The translations under genes and the position numbers were made by a program. Shown here piece after piece: positions 1 to 33,590 of a stretch of 34,825 bases of DNA (position 1 is the first letter of the stretch; the number at the start of each line of letters is the position of its first letter). Origin of the DNA: an uncultured Alistipes sp. (GTDB taxonomy: Bacteria > Bacteroidota > Bacteroidia > Bacteroidales > Rikenellaceae); the NCBI GenBank assembly GCA_949296295.1, contig CASFOM010000121.1:1-34825 (forward strand). Direction: 5' to 3'. The notes under the pieces are model-generated. The model was given only the letters and a program-made list of their open reading frames with translations. It had not been told where the DNA came from and did no database searches.

Positions 1-2442
1 GTGTTTGAATCTCCCGAGGAGGAAGCATTCTTTGGATTAGGACAACATCAGGCCGATGAATTCAACTATAAGGATAAAAACGAAGAACTGTTCCAATACA
101 ATACAAAAGTGTCGGTCCCTTTTGTCGTTTCCAATAAGAATTACGGAATATTGTGGGACAGCTATTCATTCTCCCGTTTCGGCGATGTGCGTGACTATCT
201 CCAATTGAATCAGGCTTTCAAACTCTACGACAAAGAGGGAAAGGAAGGGGCCTTGACAGGTACTTATCTTCCCGCATCCTATTCACAGGCTGAACCCATT
301 GTACGTCGAGAAGATTCCATCTATTTCGAACATCTGAAAACAGACAATCTCTCCCAGGTGGTCAACCTTCCTGAAAAATTCCCCTTCTCCGGCGCTCAGG
401 TCCTTTATGAGGGAGAGATAGAACCTTCGGAAACGGGTGACTTCCATTTTATCCTTTATTACGCCGGTTACACCAAAGTATATGTGAACCGTCAGCTTGT
501 CGTCCCTGAACGTTGGCGTACCGCCTGGAATCCGAACAGTTATAAATTTACCGTTCATTTGGAGGCAGGGAAACGGGTCCCCCTGAAAATAGAATGGAAA
601 CCCGATGGCGGTGTCTCTTATTGCGGGCTGCGCGTCCTGACTCCTCTGCCCGAAAAGGAGCAGGGAAAACAGTCCTGGTGGAGCGAGATGAATCCTGAAA
701 TAGACTACTATTTCGTGGCGGGGGATAATATGGATGAAGTCATCAGCGGCTATCGGACCTTGACCGGAAAGGCTCCCATTATGCCTAAATGGGCAATGGG
801 CTATTGGCAGAGCAGAGAACGTTATAAGACACAGGAGGAGATTCTTTCGGTGTTAAAAGAGTTCCGAAAACGGAACATCCCTATTGACAACATCGTGCAG
901 GATTGGAGTTATTGGCCTGAAAATGCCTGGGGAAGTCATGAATTTGATTCCAAACGGTTCCCCAATCCTCAGGGAATGGTCGATTCCATTCATGCGCTGA
1001 ATGCCAAGTTGATGATTTCCGTATGGCCTAAGTTTTACAGCTCGACGGAACATTATAAGGAGTTTGACAGAAACGGCTGGATGTATCAGCAGGCCGTGAA
1101 GGACAGCATACGTGACTGGATTGGGCCCGGGTACATCGGCTCCTTTTATGACGCTTATGCCGAAGGAGCCCGGAAACTCTTTTGGAAACAGATGGAAGAA
1201 CATCTTTATTCCCTCGGTATCGATGCCTGGTGGATGGATGCCAGCGAACCGAACATCCGGGATTGTATTGACATGGAATACCGGAAGGCGTTGTGCGGTC
1301 CTACCGCTTTGGGTCCCTCCGATGAATATTTCAATGCGTATGCCTTGGTCAATGCAGCCGCCATTTATGACGGACAACGCGGGGTGAATCCCGATAAACG
1401 GGTATTCTTGCTGACACGCTCCGGTTTTGCCGGATTGCAACGCTATTCCACCGCTACCTGGAGTGGAGATATTGCTACCCGTTGGGAGGATATGAAGGCT
1501 CAGATTTCCGCCGGATTGAATTTTGCCGTTAGCGGTATCCCTTATTGGACTATGGATATAGGGGGATTCTGTGTCGAAAACCGTTATGTCGCAGGACAAA
1601 GAGAGTATGACAAGAGCGGAAAGGAAAATGCCGATTATAAAGAGTGGCGAGAACTGAATACCCGCTGGTATCAGTTCGGTGCCTTCTGTCCTTTGTTCCG
1701 CGCTCATGGACAATATCCTTACCGGGAAGTGTGGAACATTGCACCGGAACAGCACCCTGCCTACCAATCAATCGTTTATTATACCCGCCTTCGCTATAAC
1801 CTGATGCCTTATATCTATTCGTTGGCGGGAATGACCTATTTTGACGATTATACCATAATGAGGCCTTTGGTGATGGATTTCCCGAAAGACAGGGAAGTGA
1901 ATGAGATCGGTGATCAGTTTATGTTCGGTCCTGCCCTGATGGTGTGTCCCGTTTATACTTATGAGGCACGCGAACGGAAAGTCTATTTCCCCGATACGGT
2001 CGGATGGTATGATTTCTATACGGGAAACCCTGTGAACAACGGTTGGCAGAAAGTGTCTGCCCCCTATGAACGCATCCCGCTGTTTGTCCGGGAAGGAGCG
2101 ATTGTTCCCTGGGGACCTGATTTGCAATACAGTGATGAGAAACCGGCTGAAACCATTACCCTGTATGTTTATAAAGGTCAAAACGGAAAATTTACCCTGT
2201 ATGAAGATGAGGGGGTGAATTATGGCTATGAAAAGGGTTCGTATGCCCTCATCCCATTGGAATACAATGAGGCGGAAGCTACCCTGACCATTGGGGAACG
2301 TCAGGGAACATTCCCCGGAATGTTGGAGAGACGAATCTTTAATGTAGTGGTGGTAAGTAAAAATAATCCTCAGCCTTTTGATTTGAATGCAAAAGGTCAG
2401 AGGGTGGAATATAACGGAGAAAAACAGGTCATTCATTTATAA
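1..2442 (+). CDS. GH31 alpha-glycosidase with PA14 insert, probable alpha-xylosidase (5' end outside window)
   Basis: This is the C-terminal 813 residues of a family 31 glycoside hydrolase. The GTG at base 1 is only an internal codon; a roughly 100-150 residue N-terminal part should lie upstream. Visible order: the end of the N-terminal beta-sandwich (FFGLGQHQ), a PA14-like insert at about residues 85-225, the catalytic barrel at about 258-590 and a DUF5110-like C-terminal sandwich at about 720-800. The nucleophile is D413 in WWMDASEPN and the acid/base is D490 in TWSGDI. A PA14 domain inserted in this position is known from xyloglucan-active alpha-xylosidases of the BoGH31A/CjXyl31A type, so removal of alpha-1,6-xylose from oligosaccharides is the best guess; alpha-glucosidase remains possible. 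It lies 12 bases before a GH2 gene and is probably cotranscribed with it. Family sure, substrate inferred. Confidence 0.9.
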   Translation: MFESPEEEAFFGLGQHQADEFNYKDKNEELFQYNTKVSVPFVVSNKNYGILWDSYSFSRFGDVRDYLQLNQAFKLYDKEGKEGALTGTYLPASYSQAEPIVRREDSIYFEHLKTDNLSQVVNLPEKFPFSGAQVLYEGEIEPSETGDFHFILYYAGYTKVYVNRQLVVPERWRTAWNPNSYKFTVHLEAGKRVPLKIEWKPDGGVSYCGLRVLTPLPEKEQGKQSWWSEMNPEIDYYFVAGDNMDEVISGYRTLTGKAPIMPKWAMGYWQSRERYKTQEEILSVLKEFRKRNIPIDNIVQDWSYWPENAWGSHEFDSKRFPNPQGMVDSIHALNAKLMISVWPKFYSSTEHYKEFDRNGWMYQQAVKDSIRDWIGPGYIGSFYDAYAEGARKLFWKQMEEHLYSLGIDAWWMDASEPNIRDCIDMEYRKALCGPTALGPSDEYFNAYALVNAAAIYDGQRGVNPDKRVFLLTRSGFAGLQRYSTATWSGDIATRWEDMKAQISAGLNFAVSGIPYWTMDIGGFCVENRYVAGQREYDKSGKENADYKEWRELNTRWYQFGAFCPLFRAHGQYPYREVWNIAPEQHPAYQSIVYYTRLRYNLMPYIYSLAGMTYFDDYTIMRPLVMDFPKDREVNEIGDQFMFGPALMVCPVYTYEARERKVYFPDTVGWYDFYTGNPVNNGWQKVSAPYERIPLFVREGAIVPWGPDLQYSDEKPAETITLYVYKGQNGKFTLYEDEGVNYGYEKGSYALIPLEYNEAEATLTIGERQGTFPGMLERRIFNVVVVSKNNPQPFDLNAKGQRVEYNGEKQVIHL

Positions 2443-2454
2443 AAAGAAACTCTT

Positions 2455-4962
2455 ATGAATAAAATGATTTCAACAGCTTTTTTAAGTCTGCTCCTTTGTT
2501 GCCTCGTCTCTTGTGTCAAACAGGAAAACCGGGTGCGGGAAAGAACTTCCTTTAATGAAGGATGGGCTTTTTATCAAGGAGAGGTTTCCGGTGCTGCGGA
2601 TACCGACTTTGATGATTCCGCCTGGAGAAAGTTGGACCTTCCCCATGACTGGGCAATAGAAGGGGCCTTTTCTCAGGATAACCCTTCCGGTACGGGGGGA
2701 GGGGCTTTGCCCGGTGGAATGGGATGGTATCGGAAAACCTTTGTCCCTGATAAAAAAGAGAAGGATAAGAAATTCTTTATCGATTTTGATGGAGTCTATA
2801 TGAATTCAGAGGTCTTTATCAATGGGGTCTCTTTGGGAAAACGACCTTATGGATATATCTCGTTCCGTTATGATTTGACGCCTTATTTGCAGTGGGGGGA
2901 GAGCAATGTGATTGCTGTCAAGGTAGATAACGTGGAACAGCCCAATTCCCGTTGGTATTCCGGATGCGGCATTTACCGAAATGTCTGGCTGACCAAAGTG
3001 AATAAGGTGCATGTGGATTTGTGGGGAACACAAGTGACTGCCCCTGAGGTTTCTGAAACGAAAGCGAAGGTGTCGGTGGCTACGCAGGTGAAAAATGAGG
3101 GAACGGAAGAGGCCCGGGTGACGGTGGTTTCCATCTTGACGGACGAGACAGGAAAGGAAATAGGCCAAACTTCCTCGGAACAACTTGTTCCTAAGGATTC
3201 TACGGCTCTCTTTTCCCATCAGATGGATGTGGTGGCTCCTGTATTGTGGTCGGTGGAGGCCCCTTATCTTTATACGGTAAAGACAAAAGTTTATGTGGCA
3301 GGGAATTTAATGGATGATTATCAGACCAGGACCGGTATTCGCACATTCCGGTTCGATGCGGGAAAAGGGTTCTTTTTGAATGGGAAATCCATGAAAATCA
3401 ATGGTGTGTGCATGCATCATGATTTGGGCTGTTTGGGGGCCGCCGTACATCGTCCCGCCATAGAACGACAGTTAAGGATTTTAAAGGAGATGGGGTGCAA
3501 CGGCATCCGTTGTTCCCATAATCCTCCGGCTCCTGAACTCTTGGAGTTGTGTGATGAAATGGGATTTATTGTGATGGATGAATCTTTTGACATGTGGCGA
3601 AGAAGGAAAACAAAACATGACTATGCCCGCTATTTTGACGAATGGTACGAACGTGATTTGACCGATTTGGTTCGTCGTGACAGAAATCATCCGTCCGTTT
3701 TTATCTGGAGTATAGGCAATGAGGTGTTGGAACAGTGGTCGGACGCCAATGCCGATACCTTGACTTTGGAACAGGCCAACATGATTCTCAACTTCGGACA
3801 TGATGCAACCCTGCTGGCAAAAGAGGGAAGAGTGAGCGTGAACAGTTTGTTGTGTAAAAGATTGGTGGACATTATAAAATCTTTGGATAATACCCGGCCC
3901 GTTACTGCCGGATGCAATGAACCGGAACCGTATAATCACTTGTTCCGTTCCGGCGCATTGGATATTATCGGGTTTAATTATCATGACGCCTGGTTTGCCG
4001 GGGTACCGGAAAAATTTCCCGGAAAACCGTTTATCGTTACTGAAAGTGTTTCGGCGTTGATGACCCGCGGATATTATCGTATGCCGGCCGACTCCGCCTT
4101 TATCTGGCCTGTCCGGTGGGACATCCCGTTTCAGGACGATTCCTTTGCCTGTTCCTCTTATGACAACTGTTATACTCCCTGGGGAAATTATCATGAAGGG
4201 ACCTTACGCCATGTAAAAAACAATGACTTTATTTGCGGACAATACATTTGGACCGGATTTGACTATTTGGGAGAACCTACTCCTTATGGATGGCCGGCCC
4301 GAAGCTCTTTCTTCGGCATTGTTGATTTGGCCGGATTCCCCAAGGATGTCTATTACCTTTACCAGTCGGAATGGACCGATAAAAAAGTGCTTCATCTGTT
4401 CCCCCACTGGAACTGGACACCCGGACAGCAGGTAGATATGAAGGTTTATTACAACAGTGCCGATGAAGTGGAACTGTTTGTGAACGGGAAATCGCAAGGG
4501 GTAAAGAAGAAAGGTCCTGATGATTTTCATGTGATGTGGCGGGTAAGCTATGAACCGGGTACGGTGAAGGCGGTATCGAGAAAGAATGGACAGGTGGTGC
4601 TTGAAAAGGAGATACATACTGCGGGAGAACCGGCTCAGATTCGTCTTACTCCCGATAAGAACAAGATACAGGCGGATGGAAAGGATATGTGTTTTGTGAC
4701 GGTGGAGGTACTGGATGAAAACGGTAATTTATGTCCCAATGCGGATAATTTGGTCCATTTTGAAGTTACGGGAGCGGGAATGATTGCCGGAGTGGATAAT
4801 GGCAGTCAGACCTCTTTAGAGTCGTTCAAAGCACCCTGTCGCAAGGCTTTTTACGGAAAATGTCTGGTAGTGCTTCAGAACAATAAGGAGCGGGGAACCT
4901 TGAAACTTGTTGCCTCTTCGGACCAACTGGCACCTGCTTCCTTGTCGGTAAATGCCGATTGA
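2455..4962 (+). CDS. GH2 beta-galactosidase-like lipoprotein
   Basis: An 835-residue family 2 glycoside hydrolase. The signal peptide ends in lipobox LVSC (C20), so it is anchored in a membrane, probably the outer membrane or facing the periplasm. Domains: sugar-binding jelly roll about 30-190, Ig-like about 195-300, TIM barrel about 305-600, a DUF4982-like segment about 640-710 and a C-terminal Ig-like domain about 720-830. The acid/base is E423 (IWSIGNEV) and the nucleophile E530 (FIVTESVS). Both are intact, so it should be active as a retaining exo-beta-glycosidase. Beta-galactosidase is the commonest activity for this architecture, but beta-glucuronidase or others cannot be excluded. It starts 12 bases after the GH31 stop; together they would remove beta-Gal and then alpha-Xyl from xyloglucan-type side chains (inference). 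Confidence 0.9.
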   Translation: MNKMISTAFLSLLLCCLVSCVKQENRVRERTSFNEGWAFYQGEVSGAADTDFDDSAWRKLDLPHDWAIEGAFSQDNPSGTGGGALPGGMGWYRKTFVPDKKEKDKKFFIDFDGVYMNSEVFINGVSLGKRPYGYISFRYDLTPYLQWGESNVIAVKVDNVEQPNSRWYSGCGIYRNVWLTKVNKVHVDLWGTQVTAPEVSETKAKVSVATQVKNEGTEEARVTVVSILTDETGKEIGQTSSEQLVPKDSTALFSHQMDVVAPVLWSVEAPYLYTVKTKVYVAGNLMDDYQTRTGIRTFRFDAGKGFFLNGKSMKINGVCMHHDLGCLGAAVHRPAIERQLRILKEMGCNGIRCSHNPPAPELLELCDEMGFIVMDESFDMWRRRKTKHDYARYFDEWYERDLTDLVRRDRNHPSVFIWSIGNEVLEQWSDANADTLTLEQANMILNFGHDATLLAKEGRVSVNSLLCKRLVDIIKSLDNTRPVTAGCNEPEPYNHLFRSGALDIIGFNYHDAWFAGVPEKFPGKPFIVTESVSALMTRGYYRMPADSAFIWPVRWDIPFQDDSFACSSYDNCYTPWGNYHEGTLRHVKNNDFICGQYIWTGFDYLGEPTPYGWPARSSFFGIVDLAGFPKDVYYLYQSEWTDKKVLHLFPHWNWTPGQQVDMKVYYNSADEVELFVNGKSQGVKKKGPDDFHVMWRVSYEPGTVKAVSRKNGQVVLEKEIHTAGEPAQIRLTPDKNKIQADGKDMCFVTVEVLDENGNLCPNADNLVHFEVTGAGMIAGVDNGSQTSLESFKAPCRKAFYGKCLVVLQNNKERGTLKLVASSDQLAPASLSVNAD

Positions 4963-9359: not shown

Positions 9360-9836
9360 TCAATACCAATAGTTGTTTTGACTGCTTCGGGAGATGGAAT
9401 ATCTGGTTCCTTCATTCATTTCCTCATAATCGCGGATAAAATCGGAAGGAGGGACAATATGAACATCAAATTCCAATAGACGCATACTCCCTGTGTCGAA
9501 ATTACCGAACAGACGGATTTGATGGGAGGCATATCCTGTATTCATCTCACTTCGATAAGTGAACCTTAAAGAGGTGGAATCTCCCGGAGGAACAATATGT
9601 TTCGCCGGTATGTGGACAATGCATCCGCAGGAGGTTTGAATCTCACTGATTACCAACGGGTGTTTCCCCGTATTTTTAAGTTGGTAAATCACTGATAGCT
9701 CATCTCCCGACGGAATGGGATAATAATGACGCACAGGATGTTGGATATCAACGGATGTGGGTTTGATTTCCGTTCGACAGCCCGTAAAAAAGGTCCATAG
9801 ACAGACCAGCAAAAAAATAAAACTATTCCTTTTCAT
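9360..9836 (-). CDS. DUF1573-family lipoprotein
   Basis: A 158-residue lipoprotein (lipobox FTGC, C20) with one DUF1573 Ig-like domain, recognisable from YQLKNTGKHPLVISEIQTSCGC (C70 and C72) and the following PPGDSTSLRFTY. The biochemical function of DUF1573 is unknown; it is common among exported Bacteroidetes proteins. Its ATG overlaps the end of the DUF4838 gene by 14 bases, so translation is probably coupled and it is the last gene of the exopolysaccharide-like operon. The last ~25 residues are polar and family-atypical. Domain call sure, role inferred only from context. Confidence 0.82.
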   Translation of the reverse strand: MKRNSFIFLLVCLWTFFTGCRTEIKPTSVDIQHPVRHYYPIPSGDELSVIYQLKNTGKHPLVISEIQTSCGCIVHIPAKHIVPPGDSTSLRFTYRSEMNTGYASHQIRLFGNFDTGSMRLLEFDVHIVPPSDFIRDYEEMNEGTRYSISRSSQNNYWY

Positions 9837-11949
9837 AAATTTCTATTTCATCACAAGCAGCGGTCATACGTACTGTTGGGTTCGGTTCTATGAGGTACTC
9901 TATGAGATCTCCGGAGGATACTTCGATTTTTATCCGGACAACCTGTTTGCTGAATGGTTCACTGCCCAATGTATTTACAGTCTCCGATACGTTGACGGGA
10001 ATGCCGTTCCGACGTACGGATATATCTTCCGGCAGAATAATTCTCCAGCGGGGAGCGGACAGAAAGCCCGCCTGGATAGTCATTTCACCGTCCTTTCGGG
10101 CATTTGTCTTTATTGTAAGCGGACTCTTGGAGAAGATGTACCATCCTGTATGGTAATCCGTCGGGAAACCATAGTAACCGTCCTGCAACAAGGAAGAATC
10201 TCCTGCATCATCCCGGGATATCACTTGAAAGGGGAGTCGGGAAGAGAAGGTGGAGGAAGAAACAACAACCGGTAAGGTTTCCCACGTGTCGAGATAAGAG
10301 GCCAACGTCCCTTCCGCTTCACGATAATGAGTCATATCGGAGAAGGAACGGTATCCTTTCAAATTGGTTACTGCATCATCCACCAGTGTCGTGTCGTAAA
10401 GATGGAGCCGGGGTAAACGCATTAGTTCCAATACGGTGAAATTGAGTGCGGTCAATAATCGGTTCAGTCGCGTACGTTCCGTCCCGTCGCTCCTTTTGGA
10501 AAGGCGGGACAAGGAGTCGCGGAAGGTTAGAAATTCAGAAACATCCAAATAGGCGGCAACAGCATCTCCGATTCCGCCATAAAAGGGAAGCTCCTGGTTA
10601 CGTTCCCGTACCCTCTTTTCCAAACCTGTGTAAAAACGGCTTAATAAATTCCCGGATACGGGATAAGCCCTTTTAAAATAACCTTCGATGAGGGGAATTG
10701 GATTGATTGAACAATCGGTCAGCAGAGCCGCAATGACCGGGGTTTGCATATCTTCGAAGGAAGAAAAATCATAACCGCTGCCATTGTAGAAAATTCCGGA
10801 AATCCCTGAGTCCAGGAAAAAGGACAAGCGTTCCTGAAGGATGGAAAGGATGGGGAACGGGGTGAGATAATCATCGAAATTCTTTATGTAGTCCCACACG
10901 TATAACCGGTCGGTTACCGCCTTCCACCGGACAACGTTTTGACGGAAGGGGGTTGCTGCCGAAGTGAGGTGGCATTGAGGACGCAGGGGAAGGTTGATGG
11001 CGCTGATGATGACTCCTGTATTGGCCGACATCTTTTGGGTAGGAGGAGTTTCTGTGGTCAGGTACGACGATGTGAAAAAGAGGTGGGCCGGAAATCGTCG
11101 GGCCAGACGTTCCAGAAGGGCTGTTACCGCAGGTGTCGCACTCTTGGGGGTGTTCCCTTTTTGAAGACAAGCCTTGCATTGGCATACAATGGCATTATCT
11201 TCCGGCATGATGCAGAATCGAATGCCCGCTCCTTTTTCTCCTGTTCCGTACTGTTCGAGAATAAAGGTTTCAAGTTGGCGGTAGAGTTTTTCGGAAGAGA
11301 AGCAGAACTGCTCGGAATGAGCGCTCCCTCCTGTTTGGGCCCATACCTCTTCCGGAAGCGTTCCGTTGAATATTTTTCGCAGGTTGTGTCCCCATAATCC
11401 CCAGTCGTCAACGTGGCTCGTACCCATAATTCCCCGCATTTCGGAATCGTTGTTCGTCGGAGAGTAGAGCGCCCGATATTCGAAAGAAAAATCTTGCGCG
11501 GTATTTTGGTTGGCTTTCAAGACAGCCGGAGGAAGGTCATTCGCCGATATGCGGCTGTCTGTTTCTGATAACAGCGAAATCCATTGATAAATCAGCCACA
11601 ACATCGTATCTTCATCCTTTGCGGAGAGGATTACTCCGTTGGAGGTGTATTGGACGCTGTATGCATGAGGCAGTTTGGAATTGACATCTGTAACGATACG
11701 AAACAGGGAACTCCCCGAATCTTTGGTGGCAACAAGGCCTGATTTCCCTGACCGGTTGTCCATCTGGATACGGAGACGTTCTGACCACTGAACATCTGCC
11801 GACTCCTCTTCCGAGGCCGGCAATACGATATAAGTACGGGGTTGGGACGTCGAAACTCCGTTTTGTTCCGCTATGGAAAAACCGGCAAACAGAAAAAACA
11901 GCGGAACCCAAGCAAACATACGGTTAAAAATAGAATGTAAAGTAACCAT
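9823..11949 (-). CDS. DUF4838 TIM-barrel protein, putative periplasmic glycosidase
   Basis: A 708-residue exported protein with a signal peptide (residues 1-27, cleavage near SIA/EQ) and no lipobox. The N-terminal ~130 residues look like the alpha-glucuronidase-type accessory domain. A TIM-barrel-like DUF4838 region follows: the stretch WDYIKNFDDYLTPFPILSILQERLSFF and the following GISGIFYNGSGYDFSSF are typical. The C-terminus is beta-rich. No catalytic residues have been defined for the family that I can point to; it is assumed to be a glycoside hydrolase by fold. The ATG at 11949 is preferred over an internal one at 11919 because it keeps a positively charged N-region, and it overlaps the barrel gene by 26 bases. 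In context it takes the place that PgaB's hydrolase domain takes in the Pga system. Confidence 0.8.
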   Translation of the reverse strand: MVTLHSIFNRMFAWVPLFFLFAGFSIAEQNGVSTSQPRTYIVLPASEEESADVQWSERLRIQMDNRSGKSGLVATKDSGSSLFRIVTDVNSKLPHAYSVQYTSNGVILSAKDEDTMLWLIYQWISLLSETDSRISANDLPPAVLKANQNTAQDFSFEYRALYSPTNNDSEMRGIMGTSHVDDWGLWGHNLRKIFNGTLPEEVWAQTGGSAHSEQFCFSSEKLYRQLETFILEQYGTGEKGAGIRFCIMPEDNAIVCQCKACLQKGNTPKSATPAVTALLERLARRFPAHLFFTSSYLTTETPPTQKMSANTGVIISAINLPLRPQCHLTSAATPFRQNVVRWKAVTDRLYVWDYIKNFDDYLTPFPILSILQERLSFFLDSGISGIFYNGSGYDFSSFEDMQTPVIAALLTDCSINPIPLIEGYFKRAYPVSGNLLSRFYTGLEKRVRERNQELPFYGGIGDAVAAYLDVSEFLTFRDSLSRLSKRSDGTERTRLNRLLTALNFTVLELMRLPRLHLYDTTLVDDAVTNLKGYRSFSDMTHYREAEGTLASYLDTWETLPVVVSSSTFSSRLPFQVISRDDAGDSSLLQDGYYGFPTDYHTGWYIFSKSPLTIKTNARKDGEMTIQAGFLSAPRWRIILPEDISVRRNGIPVNVSETVNTLGSEPFSKQVVRIKIEVSSGDLIEYLIEPNPTVRMTAACDEIEIYEKE

Positions 11950-14770
11950 AAATGCTTATCATGTTTTTATATTTTGTCGTAATGCCATTGTCGGTCGAGC
12001 TTCCTGCCGATTGAGAGTACAGGGTATAGTATAATCCGTCTATCCCGATGACCATGTGTTTCCCGATCAGATAACCGCCTCCCAATCCAAACATGACATT
12101 GAGTTTCTCAAAAGAACCCGGCATCGCATAATCGATGATATTGGCTTCAGGGGCCGTCCCTGCACCTACCGTTCCGGCCAAGAAGGTGGTTCCGTCGGAA
12201 AACGGGAAATATTTGAGTTGGGCAATGAGGTTGAAGTAGGGTTTGTTGTTCATTAAATAGCCGTCCACTTTCAGAGAAGTCCGGAAATAGTCCCAGTTTT
12301 TTGCCCCTGTAACCCCTGCGTTAATCAGGTATTTTCCCGTCGCATTGATTGGTTGCGTCTGTAATTTACGGTAACCTCCATGCCCTTCTATTTCCCACTC
12401 TTTCGGAAGGTAACAGAGGGCTCCGAAGGTGGCGATAATTTGAGGAAACTGTCGATTGGCCTAACCCAATGTGGTTGAGATATTCCAATGTTTTCCGATC
12501 TCTCTGTCCCAGCCCGCGATTAACTGTATCCCTTGTCCGGAGGGGGTAGAAGTGTTGGATTCCGAACTCTCTGAGTCAAGAACGGTATAGGAACCTTGTA
12601 TTGAAAAACGGTTTCTGGATGCTCTCCTTGTGTAGGACAAAGTGGATATCGGAGCCAATGATTGTCCGTTTATGTAATGACTGAAAAGCATTCCCAGATT
12701 GACCTCGTTTTTCATCGAACGACGTCCTAAGCCGTTTAAGTGACGCTTGAAGGCTGCCTGGTCTTCCGAGAAAGGAAGGTAAGGACTTTGATATAACTCG
12801 GCGGAATCGTATCTCCGTTGTTTCTCGTAAGCCACCCCTTGAGCATAAGTTAACTGGGGATTGTTGGCGTCATATTTCAAGGCTTGACGGATGATTTTCA
12901 GCGCTTCTTCGCTTTTATCCGACTTAATCAAGGCATGGGCAAGCATCTCACTGTTGGCAGAATAGGAGTCAATCAGTGTCTGGTTCCCGGGTAATGAATC
13001 CAACTTGGGGGCAAGCCATGCAACGGCTGCTTCGTATTGCTCTGAGTCATATAAAGAGGCAGCTTGTTTTTCAATGAAAAACAGTTCGTTGGGAAATTGT
13101 TTCAACCCCTGAAGAAGGTATTGCTTCGCCTTCTCCTCGTCCCCCGTCATTTGTGACGTTGAAACGGCATACGCCAATGCTTGCAGTGAGGCAGGAGAGG
13201 CTGTTGTCAGTCGTTCACTTTCCCGAAGTGCTTTTCGCGTATCTCCTTCTTCTATTAACGATTTGATGTATGGCAAGGCAATCTCTTCTGCATATTCTGC
13301 CAAACCTGTCCCGGGAAGTGATGAATAGAGAAGGTGCAAGGCTGATTCCGTATCCCCGCTTTCCTCAAATAATTCGGCTTTCATTAATATATACCGCTCA
13401 CGTGAGGAGAGTAAGGGTTGTAACGAATCCAATACCCGATGGGCCTCTTCGAATTTTTTTAATTTTAACTCCGTATTGTATAACCGGAACCAGGCGGTCC
13501 TCTGTAAATCGGGTTCAAGAGCGTGGGCCGTGACGAAATACAGATGAGGTTCCGCCGCTTCATACGCTCCTTCCTGCATCAGACTTTCCGCTTCGGATAA
13601 CCGTATGGAACACAAATCGGAGGATATCTCGTAATTATGAGGTTGTGATTCATATAACCGGTACAGTACCCGTGTGGCTTCAGGACGATTCTTGTCCCGG
13701 TAGAAACGATACTCTTTATAGGTCAGTTCGAAACTGTCCCCTCTCTTTTTTCTCGCTTCCGCCAGATATTTGAAAAATTCTTCCTCTTTCCCCCGTTCTA
13801 ACGATTCATCAAGCAGGTAACTCAATGCTTCATAGCTCCCGGTTTGTTGGTAAACCTGTTCGTAAAGTCGGAATGTCTCGTTGTTACGCGATTTGCGCGC
13901 ACTCTCTTCCAGAACGGAATGATAGGTTTGACGAAGAGAAAGAGTAGGGGAAACCTTCAACCGTTCGTTCAACAACGCAAGCGCTTCCGTATCACGATTG
14001 ACAGAAGCGAGTATCTCGGCTTTTTTGATTGTCAGAGATTCATTGCCGGGAAGAGAAGCCAGCCCTTTCGAAACCGTCGATAAAGCTCCATCCGCATCTC
14101 CCTGCTGTAACTGTAAATTCGACAGTTCCAAATAATACGACTCATTGTCTTTCACCTTGTCCGTTAATTCGAGCAATGTTTTTATGGCTTCTGACCGATT
14201 TCCTGTTTTCCGTTCCAACAGGTAGTTCTCTTCCAGACGGGCAACATAATCTTTACGCACCGTACTGTCCTGCGGATAAATCTGGTATAGCCGCTCCAAT
14301 AGTCTGTCTGCTTCCGAATGATTCCCCTGAAGACGATACAATCCAATCTTTTTCCGCCATAAGTCCTGATGGTAAGGATAAAAATCCAATAACTCATTGA
14401 TGTAACAGATAGCACTTGAATAATATCCGCATCGTTCTTCTATGCTAATCAGCAGATACCTTGCGTTTATGTTTTCCGGATCTTCCTGTAAAGCCCGAAT
14501 CAAATAATACCGCGCATTCTCGTCTTCCCGTCGTTCGAAATAGTAATTCCCCAACAACTCATTCAGAACCGGAGCGTCAGGATACCATTCCATTCCTGAT
14601 TTCAATACCACGAATCCTTCCTCCCAGGCTCCTCGCTCAAACAACTGCTTCGCTTCCTGTTCGTAATATTCTATGGGTTTTTTGCGTTCCCCTGCTGTCA
14701 CCGGCTCCAGAAGCAGTGATTCAAGAAAAAATAGAAACAGCAACAATATAATGGATGTGATTCTTTTCAT
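11924..14770 (-). pseudogene. TPR-repeat outer-membrane beta-barrel protein (YaiO/PgaA-like), interrupted by in-frame TAG
   Basis: Conceptual 948-residue protein: signal peptide (about 1-26), a long TPR superhelix (about 30-680) and a C-terminal YaiO-like beta-barrel (about 690-948). Codon 770 is TAG (12463-12461). Downstream, in the same frame, 178 barrel codons run on without a stop (ANRQFPQIIATFGALCYLPKE and onwards) and end in YGYFTFYF, a C-terminal Phe of the type used for outer-membrane insertion. The missing residue was probably Tyr or Trp (inference). The truncated 769-residue product would lack most of its barrel and its insertion signal. The design, periplasmic TPRs plus an OM pore, is that of PgaA/BcsC polysaccharide exporters. 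It starts 12 bases after the GT2 gene and overlaps the DUF4838 gene by 26. Confidence 0.82.
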
Positions 14771-14782
14771 CTGTTCGTAACG

Positions 14783-16204
14783 TTATTTGGTTTCTGTGGA
14801 AAAGCCTTTCCTTGTCATTTTCCCCCAAACGGCTTTCTTGTTAATCAGGTAATTCCAATATCCTTTCATGGAGAAAAAGACAACCATCGGATGATAAATA
14901 AAGGGTTCCAATAAGGCTGCCAATAAAATCCAGAGATAGGACTTGAATTTCTGATAGGAGCCTCCCAATGCATAGTCATTGAATATGACTACTATGGAGA
15001 GAGAGGTACAGAAGGTGTAGATGGCTAAGAAGATAACGATGGCTGTATTCCAATTAATGGCTCCCGTAATGGCAAGCACAATCAGTACCACAGTCCCGAT
15101 AAATTCAATAAGGGGGGCGATTAACTCAAAAAGCATCAGATAAGGAAGCGTAACCAATCCCAATTGACGGTATTTCCTGTTGAAAATAATACGTTTGTGC
15201 CGATGAAAGGTTTGAAGTAATCCTCGTCCCCACCGAATACGTTGTCGGGAAAGAATCTTGATATTGGGAGGCCCTTCCGTCCAGCAACATGTCGCAGGAA
15301 TCTGTACTACCCGATATTTTTTTGAAAAATCACAACAATAACCAACCATACGAATCAACATATCCATATCTTCTGCAAAAGAATCGGGACTGTAGCCTCC
15401 AGCTGCTATGGCTACCTGACGGTCAAACAATCCATATCCTCCCGAGACATTCGGCATGGAATTGATGGCAGACCATCCCATCTTTCCTATCAGGAAAGAA
15501 CGCATATATTCCAAGGTTTGAAATAAGGGTATTAAGGAATGAGGGGGAAGCGACTCAATAATTTCTCCGTTCTTGATTTTACAGCCATTCGACATGGCCA
15601 TTGCTCCACTTACCGCTATCACATTACTTCGCTCTATGACCGGAATGATGCATTGGTAAATGGCATCACGTGCCAGAATACAGTCTACGTCGGTATTTAT
15701 GAAATAAGGATAAGAAGCTGCATTCAGTCCCGCATTGACCGCATCTGCCTTGGTCCCTCCGTTCTCTTTGTCCACTACGATTAATTTGGAAAACTTTTTC
15801 GACGTCGATTTGAAAAGGCGTTTGAATGGTTGTGTCTTGATTTGTTCTACATAATCAAAGGGTACTTCTACCAGATTAAAATGGCTGATTAGTGTCTCTA
15901 ACGTTGAATCCTTACTCCCGTCATTTACAATGACTACCTCAAATTTCGGGTATTTCTGCGCAAGCAGCGAATTTACATTCCCCACAATGGTCCGTTCTTC
16001 ATTATAGGCCGGAGCTATGATGGATACTCCCGGGGTATAGGGACTCTTTTCTATTACTTTTTTCGCGTACGATTCTACGGAGGAGGATTTGCTCCGAAGG
16101 ATTGTCAGGGATGCCAGCCAAATCAAAATAACATACGAGACAATCATTCCCATCGAATAGATGAAAATAGTATATCCGTAAAAATCAATAATATATTCAC
16201 TCAT
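14783..16204 (-). CDS. Processive family 2 glycosyltransferase, inner membrane (PgaC/BcsA-like)
   Basis: A 473-residue membrane glycosyltransferase: one N-terminal TM segment (about 11-33), a cytosolic GT2 domain (about 57-330) and four or so C-terminal TM segments (about 345-455). Catalytic motifs are complete: D95 (VIVNDGS), D172-x-D174 (TDVDC), E278-D279 (FAEDMDM) and Q321-RI-RW. The last is the QxxRW hallmark of processive synthases that extend and export a polysaccharide. The sugar is unknown; PNAG-like, cellulose-like and hyaluronan-like products are all possible. The ATG shares ATGA with the stop of the HEAT gene, so translation is coupled to that damaged gene. There are no lesions in this gene itself. 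Confidence 0.9.
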   Translation of the reverse strand: MSEYIIDFYGYTIFIYSMGMIVSYVILIWLASLTILRSKSSSVESYAKKVIEKSPYTPGVSIIAPAYNEERTIVGNVNSLLAQKYPKFEVVIVNDGSKDSTLETLISHFNLVEVPFDYVEQIKTQPFKRLFKSTSKKFSKLIVVDKENGGTKADAVNAGLNAASYPYFINTDVDCILARDAIYQCIIPVIERSNVIAVSGAMAMSNGCKIKNGEIIESLPPHSLIPLFQTLEYMRSFLIGKMGWSAINSMPNVSGGYGLFDRQVAIAAGGYSPDSFAEDMDMLIRMVGYCCDFSKKYRVVQIPATCCWTEGPPNIKILSRQRIRWGRGLLQTFHRHKRIIFNRKYRQLGLVTLPYLMLFELIAPLIEFIGTVVLIVLAITGAINWNTAIVIFLAIYTFCTSLSIVVIFNDYALGGSYQKFKSYLWILLAALLEPFIYHPMVVFFSMKGYWNYLINKKAVWGKMTRKGFSTETK

Positions 16205-17513
16205 GACAGATAATTTGAATCTTGAATTCCTGACACTTTCTCAACATGTTCGAACAATATCCGCTCATGAGGAGAAGCAGTCTCCTTTAGTTCCAGAAAA
16301 GCTTGTTGCCCTTCAGCGTTGTAGAGCCACAGACATAAAAGCGCTGTCCGTTTTGTAAACCGGGAGGCCGAGTTCTGATAGGCTTCCCGAAGGAATGGAA
16401 CAGCCTTCCCCGATTTAATCGCTAACAGACTTTCTAAAATGGTTCTCCGAAGAGTCTCCGGTTGATCGTAATATTCCGCGTACATGGCCTCTTCCGATTC
16501 GGCGAATTTCCGTATGCCCATACCTTCAAAAGCTGCTTTCCGAAATTCAGGATTCGGGGAATGGAAATACTCGGTTAAATAGTGTACCTCGGCGGGACTT
16601 CCCCAATAGGCTGTCTCCCGAATGAAGAATGCAATCTTTTTCGAATCCGTAATCTGACGCATCAAGGGAATGAAAGAGGGGAGATGTTTGCCTAATTTCT
16701 GGCAGTCTTCGAATAATTGATGCAGCTCCATCTCGTCCCAAACCAGAAAATCCTCCACTGTCTCTTTCTCTTCAAAGAAGAGGTAGGGATCGTCCTCATT
16801 CGTCAGTATGTAATAGAATCTGGCCGCTTTCCGTAGAGGAAGGTAACGACTGTTTACCAATTGGGACATGAGGTTGTTGGCCAACGGGATGTTCAATACC
16901 CGTGCGGCTTGAATGACCCTTAACTTGTCTCGTTCCTTTCCCAAAGCCAGACGGTTTTCCATAAAATTCGTCAGACCAAGCAGGGTTAGGGTGTTTTGTA
17001 AGTTTGTAACGGCAATCTCTCCCAGCTCTGTATCGGCACGCAGGGAGATAAACAGTTCTATCCATTTGATGTTGTATGCGTACGACGTTTCTTCAACAAG
17101 TTCGGGATGAATCATGGCCGATAGCTCTTCTTCCGACAATATCTTGTCTGCCTTTGCTATGGACAATAGCGGTTCATGATATTTTACATACAGGTTTTGA
17201 TATCTTTTTTGGCCTGTTTGCGTATAAAGAAACTGCCGGACATGAACAGGCATAACAACAGAACGGCAATGCAGCAAACGATGATGATGGAATAGGATAC
17301 CTAGACTACCCAGGGATAGTCGGAGAAAAAACCTTGTAGAATACTGAGATAATAGATGATATAATCTAAGCCGCTTAATCCGATTTGCATTTCCCACGGA
17401 AGTAATATCTCGCTGCCGTCTCCGCTTTCACTCTTATAATAGATGACGAAGAAAAAAGCAAAAATGAATAATGCTGAAAGAATGAGTATGAAAAATTTTG
17501 TAGATTTCCTCAT
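16201..17513 (-). pseudogene. Inner-membrane HEAT-repeat protein, disrupted by TAG and a one-base shift
   Basis: Conceptual protein of about 437 residues. From the ATG at 17513 it reads an N-terminal TM (KFFILILSALFIFAFFFVIYY), a short loop, TAG at 17303-17301, and then in the same frame a second TM (VSYSIIIVCCIAVLLLCLFM) and FIRKQAKK. At the A6 run (plus-strand T, 17205-17210) the frame must shift by -1 to join RYQNLYVKYHEPLLS and about 330 residues of helical HEAT-like repeats ending at 16201. One lost A explains the shift. A 398-codon frame opens at 17397, but its first ~62 residues are an out-of-frame reading of the TM region and should not be annotated. Role, if intact: perhaps a partner of the GT2 synthase. 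It is the first gene of the operon. Confidence 0.75.
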
Positions 17514-18165: not shown

Positions 18166-20553
18166 ATGAAGAATAAATTGGCTCATTGTATTCATGGCAT
18201 GGTTTATATGTCATTTCTGTTTTTGATGGCTTGTTCCCTGTCGGAAGAAGAGACCGGTTCTTTGAAATTGTATTTTAACCGACCGGCTTCAACCTGGTTG
18301 GAGGCTATCCCCATAGGGAATGGTCGATTGGGGGCTATGGTGTTCGGTGGGGTGGAGGAAGAGAGAATCTGTACGAATGATGATACCTTCTGGTCGGGAG
18401 AACCCCGGGATGTACAGAATCCCTCTGCAGCGCAATATTTACCCGAAATACGGCAGCTTTTGTCGGATGAAAAAAATCTGGAGGCGCAGGCTTTGATTGA
18501 CAAGACCATGCTGGGCCCCTGGAATGAATGTTATATGCCGTTGGCCGATATTGTGTTAAGAACGGAGAAGAAAAATTACTCGGATTATTCTCATATTCTG
18601 GATATGAATCGGGGGATGGTAAAAACCCGATATACACAAGACGGGGTAACCTATACCCGTGAAATTTTTGCCTCTTATCCCGAACAGGCTATTGTGATGC
18701 GTGTGGTGGCGGATAAAAAAGGAGCGATTGATATGGAGATTGCCTTGGAAAGCCAGATTAGACATCAAGTGAATGTATTGGATGACAAAACATTGGTTAT
18801 CTCGGGAACGGCTCCGAGACATACGGAACCTCATTATCAGGGGAAACATGCTCCTGTTTACGAGGAGGGACACGGAATGCGTTTTGAAGGACGCATTGTG
18901 GTACAGGAAACGGATGGAAAGGTCGTGCCGAACCGAAATAAGTTGGAAGTGAAAGAGGCGTCGTCCGTTACCTTGATTTACGTTGCCGCTACCAGCTTCA
19001 ATGGATTTGACAAGAATCCGAATACAGAAGGGAAGGATGAAAAGGCCCTTTGTGAGCAATATCTTGGCCGGATAGGTACGAAAAAATACAAGGCTTTACG
19101 AGACAGACATTTGAAGGATTATCAGGAATTGTTCAACCGTGTCTCTATTGATTTGGGAACTTCCCCGAGGGATTCTCTTCCTTTGGATCAGAGAATAAAA
19201 GAGTATCAGCCGGGTATGGACCCGTCATTGACGGCTCTTTATTTCCAGTTTGGCCGTTATTTGTTGCTCTCTTCTTCCAGACCGGGGTCTCAACCTGCCA
19301 ATCTGCAGGGGATATGGAATTATGATATGCAACCGGCCTGGAGTGCCAACTGGACGATTAACTGCAATACCCAGATAAATTATTGGCCGGTAGAGGTGGC
19401 TAATTTGTCGGAATGTCATTTGCCGTTGATGGATATGATTCGGGAAATTACGGTGGACGGTGCCAAAACAGCCCGGAATTTATATCGCAGCCGGGGGTGG
19501 GTGGCTCATCACAATATCGATTTGTGGAGAACAACCTGGCCGGTAGGGGGAACCGGACTCTGGGCAATTTATCAGGTGGGAGGAGCCTGGTTGTGCCAAC
19601 ATATCTGGGAACACTATTTGTTTACACAGGACAAAGATTTTCTGAGGGAATATTATCCGGTATTGAAAGGTGCCTCTTTGTTTTATTTGGATAATCTTCA
19701 AAAAGATAAAGAGGGGTATTGGGTAACCAATCCTTCTGAATCTTTTGAGAACATGTATGTTAAACCGAATGGAGAAGTGGGGTGGGCTTGTATTGGTGCG
19801 GCTCAGGATATGCAGATTATCAGGTCGTTGTTTAAAAATACGATGGCTGCCATAGATACTCTGAATGAAGACCTGTCTTTTAAATCGGAGATACAGGCAA
19901 AATATGAGCAATTGGCTCCCATGAGAATCAGTCCTCGAACGGGACAGTTGCAAGAGTGGAATGACGATTGGGAGGCTTCGGATCCTCATAATGGTCAGGT
20001 AGCCCATGGCTGGGGTGTAGTGGCAAGCGATTTGATTACCCTCCGGGGAACTCCCGAATTGGCTCAGGCTTTTAGAAAAACCATAGAGTATCGGAAACCG
20101 GGCTATTCCTACAACAGCGGTAGTTGGACAGGTGCTTTCCCGGCCAACTTTTGGGCCCGCCTGGGAGAAGGAGACAGTGTGCAACGCGTCATTGACCGCC
20201 ATTTTATGAAGGTCCTGAATCCTAATTTCACCTGTAATTTTACAGGGTATTGGGAGATAGACGGGAACTTGGGAATAGCGGCTTCGGTGGCCGAGATGTT
20301 GTTGCAAAGTCATGCTGGAGAAATAGATTTGTTGCCTGCCTTGGCAGATGATTATCCGACAGGTTATGTTTTGGGACTGCGTGCGCGCGGAGGCTATGAA
20401 GTAGATATGTACTGGAAGGAAAGAAAATTGCAGAAGGCTGTGATTAGAGCCGACCGTATCTCAGAAAAGAAACAGCTTGCCATTCGTTACGGGGAACAGC
20501 TTGAAAAGGTGGTGATGAACCCCGGACAAACTCTGACCTTTATTCCCGATTAA
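18166..20553 (+). CDS. GH95 alpha-L-fucosidase-like lipoprotein
   Basis: A 795-residue family 95 glycoside hydrolase with a lipoprotein signal (lipobox LMAC, C23, followed by SLSEEE). Layout: N-terminal beta-sandwich (about 32-270, GNGRLGAMVFGG), a linker, an (alpha/alpha)6 catalytic barrel (about 310-690) and a C-terminal sandwich. Family catalytic residues are present: the N399-x-N401 pair (NCNTQINYWPVE), the acid E528 (PSESFEN) and D747 (YEVDMYWK), matching N421/N423/E566/D766 of Bifidobacterium AfcA. GH95 enzymes invert and release alpha-1,2-L-fucose; some act on alpha-L-galactose. With the PA14-GH31 and GH2 genes it would complete removal of a Fuc-Gal-Xyl side chain (inference). It is followed by a hairpin terminator. 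Confidence 0.92.
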   Translation: MKNKLAHCIHGMVYMSFLFLMACSLSEEETGSLKLYFNRPASTWLEAIPIGNGRLGAMVFGGVEEERICTNDDTFWSGEPRDVQNPSAAQYLPEIRQLLSDEKNLEAQALIDKTMLGPWNECYMPLADIVLRTEKKNYSDYSHILDMNRGMVKTRYTQDGVTYTREIFASYPEQAIVMRVVADKKGAIDMEIALESQIRHQVNVLDDKTLVISGTAPRHTEPHYQGKHAPVYEEGHGMRFEGRIVVQETDGKVVPNRNKLEVKEASSVTLIYVAATSFNGFDKNPNTEGKDEKALCEQYLGRIGTKKYKALRDRHLKDYQELFNRVSIDLGTSPRDSLPLDQRIKEYQPGMDPSLTALYFQFGRYLLLSSSRPGSQPANLQGIWNYDMQPAWSANWTINCNTQINYWPVEVANLSECHLPLMDMIREITVDGAKTARNLYRSRGWVAHHNIDLWRTTWPVGGTGLWAIYQVGGAWLCQHIWEHYLFTQDKDFLREYYPVLKGASLFYLDNLQKDKEGYWVTNPSESFENMYVKPNGEVGWACIGAAQDMQIIRSLFKNTMAAIDTLNEDLSFKSEIQAKYEQLAPMRISPRTGQLQEWNDDWEASDPHNGQVAHGWGVVASDLITLRGTPELAQAFRKTIEYRKPGYSYNSGSWTGAFPANFWARLGEGDSVQRVIDRHFMKVLNPNFTCNFTGYWEIDGNLGIAASVAEMLLQSHAGEIDLLPALADDYPTGYVLGLRARGGYEVDMYWKERKLQKAVIRADRISEKKQLAIRYGEQLEKVVMNPGQTLTFIPD

Positions 20554-31891: not shown

Positions 31892-32656
31892 TTATACCTC
31901 TTTCATGAGTTTTTCCTTGAGCGAGGTAACCGTTAAATTGGTTTGTAAAATGCCGCCTTTGGCCATTGAGATACGTCCGGTCTGTTCCGATACTACTATG
32001 GCTATGGCATCTGTCTGTTCCGTAATGCCAATGGCTGCGCGGTGTCGCATCCCTAAACTGGGAGAAATGTCCAATCGTTCGGTCGTAGGCAATACACAAC
32101 GGGCCGATTCGATGCGTCCGTTCTGAATAATCATGGCTCCATCATGCAATGGAGTATTCTTGAAGAAAATGGTTTCAATAAGTCGTTGAGAAATTTCTGC
32201 TTTTAAGGTATCTCCTGTCTCCTGGATAAATAACAGGTCGTTTTTCCGGGCAATGATGATAAGGGCCCCCGTACGTGTCTGGGCCATTTGTCCGCAGGCA
32301 GCAGAAAGTTCACTGATCCAGCCTCCTCGATCTCCACGAAACCCATTCCCCCGACTGAACCGATTGCCAATCCGGTAAAAATACTTGTTCCCGATATAAA
32401 GCAGAAATCTTCGAATCTCTTGTTGAAAAACAATTACCAGTCCCAAAACACCTACTCCGATAACCTGTCCCAAAATGGCAGACAGTAGCTCCATGTGTAA
32501 AATGCGGACAAAAATCCATAACAGGTAAAACAGAAAAATCCCTATGGCGATACCATAGGCACTTGTACCGCGTATAAGACGGTATAATTGCCACATGATA
32601 AGAGCTACCAATACTACGTCTATAATATCGGCCAGACTTATATGGATGAAGTCCAT
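31892..32656 (-). CDS. cdaA: Diadenylate cyclase, membrane-bound CdaA type
   Basis: A 254-residue enzyme that makes cyclic di-AMP from two ATP. Three N-terminal TM segments (about 8-25, 33-52, 60-78) precede a DAC domain (about 110-240) with the catalytic D172-G-A motif (LHDGAM) and R204-H-R (GMRHRAAIG). The length is normal for CdaA. It overlaps the end of folP by 19 bases and is therefore in its transcript. In many Firmicutes cdaA pairs with cdaR and glmM; here it follows folP instead, an order seen in other Bacteroidetes. Expected roles are potassium/turgor and cell-wall homeostasis. Confidence 0.95.
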   Translation of the reverse strand: MDFIHISLADIIDVVLVALIMWQLYRLIRGTSAYGIAIGIFLFYLLWIFVRILHMELLSAILGQVIGVGVLGLVIVFQQEIRRFLLYIGNKYFYRIGNRFSRGNGFRGDRGGWISELSAACGQMAQTRTGALIIIARKNDLLFIQETGDTLKAEISQRLIETIFFKNTPLHDGAMIIQNGRIESARCVLPTTERLDISPSLGMRHRAAIGITEQTDAIAIVVSEQTGRISMAKGGILQTNLTVTSLKEKLMKEV

Positions 32657-33498
32657 GATGGTAATGTTTTATAAAGTTTGATAACTTCCATGGCCTCTGA
32701 TACATCGTGTACCCGAAGAATATGGACACCTTGCCGCAGACATTCCGTATGAAGGGCGGTGGTGCCGTTGAGCGCTTCTTCCGGTGTGATATTTAAAGAG
32801 CGATATATCATGCTTTTACGGGAAATACCTGCCAATATGGGAAGTCCGAATACATGGAAACGGTGCAGTCCGTTTAACAATTCAAAATTTTGCGTCCCCG
32901 TTTTGGCGAACCCAAAACCCGGATCGAGTATTAGGTTGTAGATCCCTTGTTGATGCAGCTTGTTGATGCGGTGAGTGAAGTAATCCAACAACTCTTCCGT
33001 CACATCGCTGTAACTGCAGTGTTGTTGCATGGTATCGGGAGTTCCCCGCATGTGCATAATGACATAGGGCAGATGGTAACGGGCAACGATTTTAGCCATA
33101 CGGGAATCTCCTTCCCCGGCTGTAATATCGTTGATGATACAGGGCCCGAACTGTTTTACCGCTTCTTCTGCTATATGGCTTCGAAAGGTATCTATCGAGA
33201 CGGTTACATCTCCATAGCGGGAACGAATGACCTCCAAGGCTCCTAAAACACGTCGCAACTCTTCCGATTCAGGAACATCGGAGGCTCCGGGACGACTTGA
33301 ATATCCTCCTATATCCAAGATGGAGGCTCCTTGTGCCAAGACCTCTTCTACCCGCTTACTGATGGCCTCCTGACCTTTTAACCGCGATTTGGAGAAAAAG
33401 GAATCGGGAGTGATGTTTAAAATGGCCATCACAACAGGAGTATGGAGAGGAAGCAGCTTCCCTCCAATGTTCAAGGATATAAATGGTTTTGTCATCAT
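32638..33498 (-). CDS. folP: Dihydropteroate synthase
   Basis: A 286-residue cytosolic enzyme of folate synthesis that joins p-aminobenzoate to hydroxymethyl-dihydropterin diphosphate; target of sulfonamides. Motifs are complete: NITPDSF (28-34), LDIGGYSSRPGA (61-72), SIDTF (101-105, D103), IINDI (N123), DPGFGFAKT (192-200), SRKS (K228) and RVHD (262-265). The open frame reaches 33627, but the -7 box at 33525-33532 and the normal family N-terminus place the start at the ATG pair 33498/33495. It is the first gene of a two-gene unit with cdaA. Confidence 0.95.
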   Translation of the reverse strand: MMTKPFISLNIGGKLLPLHTPVVMAILNITPDSFFSKSRLKGQEAISKRVEEVLAQGASILDIGGYSSRPGASDVPESEELRRVLGALEVIRSRYGDVTVSIDTFRSHIAEEAVKQFGPCIINDITAGEGDSRMAKIVARYHLPYVIMHMRGTPDTMQQHCSYSDVTEELLDYFTHRINKLHQQGIYNLILDPGFGFAKTGTQNFELLNGLHRFHVFGLPILAGISRKSMIYRSLNITPEEALNGTTALHTECLRQGVHILRVHDVSEAMEVIKLYKTLPSWTSSI

Positions 33499-33524
33499 AT
33501 TTTTTACAGGAAAAGTTCCCTTTA

Positions 33525-33556
33525 CAAAGATATATGGTTTGTTCGGGATTGCCAAT
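33525..33556 (-). promoter_or_regulatory. folP-cdaA promoter
   Basis: Minus-strand -7 TATCTTTG (33532-33525) with a TTG-type -33 about 20 bases upstream (33553-33556). Leader of about 20 bases to the ATG at 33498. Confidence 0.6.
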
Positions 33557-33590
33557 TTTATTGTTCCGTTTCGATAAAAGGAGATGGATG

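What the first reader, a model, noticed from the sequence alone, without database searches (positions are those of the whole stretch)
9360..17513. Five-gene operon that looks like a synthase-dependent exopolysaccharide machine, with DUF4838 and DUF1573 as unusual parts
Seen: tight minus-strand coupling (ATGA overlap, 12-base gap, 26- and 14-base overlaps) of an inner-membrane HEAT-repeat protein, a GT2 with the processive QxxRW motif, a TPR protein with a C-terminal outer-membrane barrel, an exported DUF4838 protein and a DUF1573 lipoprotein. Known: Pga and Bcs systems combine a processive GT2, a TPR plus OM-pore protein (PgaA/BcsC) and a periplasmic hydrolase. Inferred: this is a Bacteroidetes counterpart in which DUF4838 takes the hydrolase place and the HEAT protein replaces the usual co-polymerase. 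I know of no described system with this gene set.
Basis: partly seen in the sequence, partly recalled or inferred. Interest (0 to 1): 0.78.

Follow-up and report, generated by a model that had tools for sequence, protein, structure and literature searches.

The report
Undescribed Bacteroidota sugar-polymer secretion operon
A five-gene cluster, found across Bacteroidota with its core enzyme in about a quarter of sampled genomes, has the layout of a machine that makes a sugar polymer and pushes it out through both membranes, but it lacks the usual control parts and I found no description of it; the copy in this window is broken in two genes.

Summary
The operon is real: HEAT protein (H), GT2 (G), TPR + barrel (B), DUF4838 (D), DUF1573 lipoprotein (L), with the stated overlaps. 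Intact relatives exist. Among 84 loci found through the GT2, H is present in 78 and B in 77. In a sample of 198 Bacteroidota genomes, 50 carry the GT2, 48 carry a YaiO barrel, and all 48 barrel genomes have the GT2; 31/31 H genes lie within 3 kb of it. The GT2 has the processive D, DxD, ED, QxxRW set in 84/84. D folds as a GH115/GH84/GH67/GH20-type hydrolase with invariant active-site-like residues. B ends in a 14-strand barrel. This is the layout of synthase-dependent polysaccharide secretion, but it fails curated cut-offs for Pga and Bcs and no c-di-GMP domain was detected. Two subtypes exist: one with L, one with a stand-alone CheY-like receiver, almost mutually exclusive. H faces the cytoplasm, so it looks like a regulatory adaptor rather than a periplasmic co-polymerase. 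Verdict: a new, widespread variant of synthase-dependent exopolysaccharide secretion. Polymer, enzyme activities and control are untested.

The parts
16201..17513 (-). H: inner-membrane HEAT-repeat protein, broken here (in-frame TAG at about 17303, where relatives have Gln; frameshift at about 17.2 kb). Predicted: membrane-anchored, HEAT domain in the cytoplasm
   Evidence: PF13646; C-terminal side of last TM more positive in 66 of 76 H genes; relatives' sequence at the TAG; present in 78/84 loci, beside the GT2
14783..16204 (-). G: membrane GT2, processive-synthase type (D, DxD, ED, QxxRW; one TM before and about three after the catalytic part), intact
   Evidence: motifs in 84/84; topology; best NCBIfam match PgaC/IcaA 117.6 bits, far below the 422.3 cut-off
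11924..14770 (-). B: signal peptide, periplasmic TPRs and C-terminal outer-membrane barrel; in-frame TAG at codon 770 (12461-12463), where relatives have Trp, cuts off most of the barrel
   Evidence: searches (TPR; weak TIGR04390 YaiO in L013/L016; relative's barrel: 14 strands, pLDDT 90), 58/61, 62/65
9823..11949 (-). D: exported DUF4838 protein, predicted glycoside hydrolase fold; invariant D251 and D353 and four invariant Cys; intact
   Evidence: PF16126; AF2 pLDDT 90.5; GH115 Z 16.3; invariant columns
9360..9836 (-). L: DUF1573 (HYDIN/VesB-like Ig) lipoprotein, intact
   Evidence: PF07610; lipobox

Best explanation
The operon encodes a synthase-dependent exopolysaccharide secretion machine of Bacteroidota. 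Proposed mechanism: G polymerises a nucleotide-sugar-derived glycan in the cytoplasm and threads it through its own transmembrane channel. H is anchored in the inner membrane with its HEAT repeats in the cytoplasm and holds or gates G; in the sister lineage this is the likely docking point for a phosphorylatable stand-alone receiver. In the periplasm the TPRs of B scaffold the polymer and D. D is a retained glycosidase that trims or clears the chain. The polymer leaves through B's 14-strand outer-membrane barrel. L, an Ig-like lipoprotein, probably braces the B/D assembly. Shown: gene content, order and conservation, GT2 motif set, predicted D and barrel folds, co-occurrence. Inferred: processivity, polymer export, D as hydrolase, H as regulator, role of L. 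Sugar identity unknown; HexNAc or hexuronic acid is a guess from D's structural neighbours and the GT2's nearest family. The window's own copy is probably non-functional or defective.
For: Five-gene order H-G-B-D-L recurs in Rikenellaceae, Bacteroidaceae, Prevotellaceae, Flavobacteriaceae, Weeksellaceae and Sphingobacteriaceae. Unbiased survey of 198 Bacteroidota genomes: 50 with GT2, 48 with YaiO barrel, overlap 48 (Fisher 4e-44); 48/52 barrels within 8 kb and 31/31 H within 3 kb of a GT2. GT2 catalytic motifs in 84/84 and 1+3 TM topology. Barrel: 14 strands, pLDDT 90; Foldseek matches include BcsC, PgaA and AlgE; nearly all relatives' barrels end in Phe. D: pLDDT 90.5, structural match to GH115, GH84, GH67, GH20, with W186, H188, D251, Y296, N310, W352, D353, Y354 invariant in 39 sequences. 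Strong constraint on all five genes against L013: amino-acid-changing sites differ at 11-38%, silent sites at about 80-88%.
Against: No experiment. D is missing in two loci that keep H-G-B-L (L018, L019) and in most of the receiver lineage, so it is not essential to every form. Top structural hits of the barrel are FadL/OmpG/CymA-type channels, not EPS porins; any 14-strand barrel would give that. No c-di-GMP, PilZ or PgaD element was detected. DUF4838 homologues also occur outside the operon. The window copy is broken.
Confidence: 0.8

Rival explanations
1. G is a non-processive glycosyltransferase that decorates a lipid or surface glycan, and B is an outer-membrane protein with another role.
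For: GT2 is a broad superfamily; the GT2's scores against curated synthases are far below cut-off.
Against: Complete D, DxD, ED, QxxRW set in 84/84, 1+3 TM layout, and near-obligate pairing with a TPR/barrel protein, which is the synthase-dependent layout (PMC7112194).
Confidence: 0.09
2. The locus is a glycan-uptake or degradation locus: D degrades an external glycan and the barrel imports the products.
For: DUF4838 homologues sit next to SusC/D-like and GH29/GH92-like genes elsewhere (L096; assigned by eye); nearest structures of the barrel are import channels; the window itself is rich in exo-glycosidase genes.
Against: A biosynthetic membrane GT2 is the conserved centre; no SusC/SusD in the operon; B has a long TPR domain as in PgaA, BcsC and NfrA; the receiver lineage often keeps G-H-B without D.
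Confidence: 0.06
3. About this copy only: the locus is a decaying pseudogene cluster in this organism, with no function left.
For: Three independent lesions in H and B (two nonsense, one frameshift) while every other long gene in the window reads through; a related genome (G008) has a frameshift in D.
Against: The rest shows no excess of amino-acid-changing substitutions: after the B stop 0.337 against 0.374 before it, so lesions are recent or are assembly errors in a 300-contig genome. Reads are not available.
Confidence: 0.55
4. TAG is read as an amino acid in this organism and the genes are intact.
For: Both in-frame stops are TAG.
Against: One TAG stands where relatives have Gln, the other where they have Trp; 7 of 29 predicted genes in the window end in TAG; the frameshift would remain.
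Confidence: 0.02

Closest known systems
Pga/Hms (poly-N-acetylglucosamine) system
   Same: Processive-type GT2 (nearest curated family PgaC/IcaA), periplasmic TPR scaffold fused to an outer-membrane barrel (PgaA-like), periplasmic processing enzyme with a glycoside hydrolase domain (PgaB; PMC9384988)
   Different: GT2 117.6 bits against a cut-off of 422.3; B 26.4 against 366.65; no polysaccharide deacetylase found, no PgaD; HEAT protein and DUF4838 instead
Bcs (cellulose) system
   Same: GT2 + TPR/barrel + periplasmic glycosidase (BcsA/BcsC/BcsZ); BcsC among Foldseek matches of the barrel
   Different: CelA 27 bits against 699; no PilZ, no BcsB, 14 rather than 16 strands (the 16 from my own knowledge)
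E. coli NfrBA-YbcH (PMC8669469)
   Same: GT2 synthase, TPR + outer-membrane pore, small periplasmic accessory protein; even a 14-base gene overlap is reported there
   Different: NfrB is controlled by c-di-GMP through an MshEN domain; here no such domain was detected, and H and D have no counterpart
E. coli yaiS-yaiP-yaiX-yaiO
   Same: GT2 gene next to a YaiO-family barrel gene
   Different: YaiP is 22% identical and lacks QxxRW; no TPR domain, HEAT or DUF4838; YaiO against the operon's barrel profile gave no significant match; function unknown
GH115 / GH84 / GH67 / GH20 glycosidases
   Same: Overall fold of D: N-terminal alpha/beta domain plus TIM barrel (GH115 Z 16.3, 446 residues at 4.6 A)
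   Different: 8-14% identity; catalytic residues not mapped; four invariant Cys (216, 256, 258, 261) in D

Membership tests
[quoted passage not shown]
   Sequence level: GT2 family, D/DxD/ED/QxxRW in 84/84, TM layout; activity untested
[quoted passage not shown]
   Pfam/NCBIfam scans of all five proteins show no PilZ, MshEN or PgaD-like match; H has only HEAT repeats. By sequence only; binding untested
[quoted passage not shown]
   D is exported and has a glycosidase fold with invariant active-site-like residues; activity untested; absent in some lineages
[quoted passage not shown]
   TPR by Pfam and 14-strand barrel model for an intact relative; interrupted in the window copy
[quoted passage not shown]
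   Overlapping or closely spaced genes in the window and in relatives
Pga (PNAG) system | PgaC and PgaA equivalog scores above curated cut-offs | tested here: not met
   117.6 of 422.3 and 26.4 of 366.65 bits
Pga (PNAG) system | Product is poly-beta-1,6-GlcNAc | not testable with these tools
   No chemistry available
Bcs (cellulose) system | CelA/BcsA score above curated cut-off | tested here: not met
   27 of 699.1 bits
YaiO outer-membrane barrel family (TIGR04390) | Score above the 32-bit cut-off | tested here: inconclusive
   Two five-gene-type B proteins 24-25 bits (below); receiver-lineage B proteins 92-196 bits (above); the window's own genome gave no match
DUF4838 (PF16126) | Score above the Pfam gathering score | tested here: met
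   101.4 bits against 26.6
GH115/GH84/GH67/GH20 glycosidases | Catalytic residues and activity | not tested
   Fold match only; residues not superposed on known active sites
DUF1573 (PF07610) | Score above the Pfam gathering score | tested here: met
   61.3 bits against 26.1

The most novel reading that the evidence does not exclude
A polymer synthase controlled by protein phosphorylation instead of c-di-GMP: a stand-alone CheY-like receiver, often encoded beside a hybrid histidine kinase, docks on the cytoplasmic HEAT protein and switches the GT2 on or off. In the window's lineage this input is replaced by the DUF1573 lipoprotein, possibly sensing the state of the periplasmic export complex.
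Probability: 0.35. Interest if true: 0.85.

Novelty: new variant of a known kind. Interest (0 to 1): 0.72.

Why it matters
[quoted passage not shown] This one has its GT2 and barrel in roughly a quarter of the Bacteroidota genomes sampled, including gut, soil and marine lineages. It would give the phylum a polymer system of its own and assign a likely job to DUF4838, DUF1573 and YaiO-type barrels. It also makes a direct question testable: how is a processive synthase controlled without c-di-GMP?

Tried and rejected
TAG recoding: rejected, as the two TAGs replace Gln and Trp and TAG ends other genes. Viral relatives of the GT2: none found in IMG/VR. A D substitute in loci without D: L018/L019 carry a 423-447 aa lipoprotein-like protein without Pfam match whose cluster also occurs in loci that do have D, so no replacement is claimed. 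GH16-like, sulfatase-like and Ig/Por-tail proteins next to some receiver-lineage loci are suggestive but scattered. E. coli YaiO aligned to the operon's barrel profile: no significant match. Literature: DUF4838 is named in one paper, not on this topic; searches on YaiO, HEAT + GT + Bacteroidetes, DUF1573 and synthase-dependent + Bacteroidota found no description; the library is open-access only. GH153 (PgaB) did not appear in the D structure lists shown, which does not exclude it.
Full report
WHAT IS THERE. On the minus strand, 17513 to 9360, five genes follow each other with a 4-base overlap, a 12-base gap, a 26-base overlap and a 14-base overlap. What it did not report is that this copy is damaged. 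B carries an in-frame TAG at codon 770, after which the barrel continues in the same frame to a Phe-ending C-terminus. H carries an in-frame TAG in its N-terminal part and then a frameshift near 17.2 kb. In relatives the two TAG positions are Trp and Gln, and 7 of 29 predicted genes in the window end in TAG, so these are ordinary lesions or assembly errors, not recoding. After the B stop, amino-acid-changing differences to L013 are no more frequent than before it (0.337 against 0.374), while silent sites are near saturation; any damage is therefore recent. The nearest homologue among the family members searched, in G008 (79% in GT2), has the same operon with a frameshift in D.

CONSERVATION. 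A GT2 profile search of species genomes returned the best 80 loci, all but one (a MAG contig labelled Beijerinckiaceae, L031) from Bacteroidota. With G008, G031, G037 and the window, 84 loci were annotated with iterative profiles. H is present in 78, B in 77, D in 50 and L in 31. The full order H-G-B-D-L is found in Alistipes, Bacteroides, Prevotella, Polaribacter, Chryseobacterium, Sphingobacterium and others, with gaps or overlaps of mostly a few tens of bases. Because those loci were chosen by GT2, I ran an independent survey of 198 Bacteroidota genomes: 50 carry the GT2, 48 carry a YaiO barrel above the curated cut-off, and all 48 are among the 50 (Fisher 4e-44). 31 of 31 H matches lie within 3 kb of a GT2, and 48 of 52 barrels within 8 kb. 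H was not detected at 24 of the 55 GT2 genes, by divergence or absence. DUF4838 alone is less faithful: 7 of 15 strong matches lie at a GT2. The others sit elsewhere; the clearest case is L096, where my reading of the neighbouring protein sequences suggests SusC/D-like, GH92-like and GH29-like genes (not checked by Pfam).

TWO SUBTYPES. A tree of the 84 GT2 proteins has a supported split (100/99) between 35 rows, mostly D+L, and 49 rows, mostly with a single-domain CheY-like receiver within 6.5 kb, often directly upstream of H. In loci with enough flanking sequence, L and receiver exclude each other (1 with both, 24 L only, 37 receiver only, 3 neither; Fisher 2e-13, not corrected for phylogeny). 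On the tree this needs 2 changes for L, 3 for the receiver and 4 for D, so it is a few old changes rather than many independent ones. The receiver was checked by Pfam in one case (Response_reg, 104 bits). In Chitinophagaceae-type loci a second GT2 gene stands between H and G.

WHAT THE PARTS LOOK LIKE. G has D, DxD, ED and QxxRW motifs in 84 of 84 sequences and mostly one TM segment before and two to three after the catalytic part; its best curated match is PgaC/IcaA but far below cut-off. B of the intact relative L013 has an AlphaFold2 barrel model of 14 strands (pLDDT 90.2); structural neighbours are FadL, OmpG and CymA (Z about 19-21), with BcsC, PgaA and AlgE also among Foldseek matches. 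B proteins of the receiver lineage match TIGR04390 YaiO at 92-196 bits; the five-gene type matches weakly, 24-25 bits. D has a high-confidence model (pLDDT 90.5) whose nearest structures are GH115 alpha-glucuronidases (Z 16.3), BT0459 hexosaminidase, GH84 O-GlcNAcases, GH67 and GH20; a sequence-profile match to BT0459 supports this independently over its C-terminal part. Trp186, His188, Asp251, Tyr296, Asn310, Trp352, Asp353, Tyr354 and four Cys are invariant in 39 sequences, as expected of a live enzyme rather than a relic. D is a lipoprotein in at least 20 of 51 and L in 26 of 31 by lipobox. For H, the residues after the last TM segment are more positive than those before it in 66 of 76 cases, which places the HEAT repeats in the cytoplasm by the positive-inside rule.

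HOW IT PROBABLY WORKS. [quoted passage not shown] G, D and B fit three of these by sequence and predicted fold. In PgaA the TPR domain binds both polymer and PgaB and tunes its hydrolase (PMC9384988), the model I transfer to B and D. The c-di-GMP part was not detected. H, on the cytoplasmic side and encoded next to a receiver in the sister lineage, is the natural candidate for control, but that is inference. L, with an Ig-like fold, may stabilise the periplasmic assembly or report on it.

KNOWN OR NEW. Pga, Bcs, NfrBA-YbcH (PMC8669469) and the E. coli yaiSPXO genes are the closest. None has H or D, and curated cut-offs for Pga and Bcs are missed by wide margins. I therefore call it a new variant of synthase-dependent secretion, not a member of any of these systems. 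The literature search covered open-access text only, so an unseen description remains possible.

LIMITS. No activity, polymer or localisation has been measured. Gene calls in the 84 loci came from a simple in-house caller. The conclusion about cytoplasmic HEAT rests on hydropathy and charge only. The window copy itself may be dead.

Noticed in passing
L083:11442-13508; L072:11414-13459; L084:11415-13457; L090:11451-13496; L080:11388-13475: In several receiver-lineage loci a roughly 680-residue membrane protein follows the GT2; the L083 copy matches Sulfatase (PF00884), possibly a phosphoethanolamine- or phosphoglycerol-type transferase that modifies the polymer.
   Followed up: partly
L068:4584-5789; L072, L074, L080, L083, L084, L090: A conserved family of about 390 residues with an N-terminal TM segment and no Pfam match (two members scanned) sits near these loci, usually beside the barrel gene.
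   Followed up: partly
L031, L033, L035, L040, L043, L045, L046, L054, L056, L059: Chitinophagaceae-type loci carry two consecutive GT2 genes (H-G-G-B-D), which could mean a heteropolymer or a split synthase.
   Followed up: no
L031: A GT2 operon on a MAG contig labelled Beijerinckiaceae (Pseudomonadota) groups inside Chitinophagaceae-type sequences: probable binning error or transfer.
   Followed up: no
L096:1-19001; L092:4158-16100: DUF4838 homologues outside the operon; in L096 beside proteins that read like SusC/D, GH92 and GH29, and in L092 three DUF4838-type genes in one stretch. This suggests the family is glycosidic in general.
   Followed up: partly
L007:15353-17448: In G008 the DUF4838 gene of the same operon is frameshifted, a second damaged copy in this lineage.
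   Followed up: partly
window 18166-20553, 26822-29146, 29153-31417, 1-4962: The window is rich in exo-glycosidase-like genes (by eye GH95-, GH92-, GH31- and GH2-type), not part of the operon.
   Followed up: no
window 31892-33627: A gene that looks like a diadenylate cyclase (CdaA-type) overlaps a folP-like gene by 19 bases on the minus strand.
   Followed up: no
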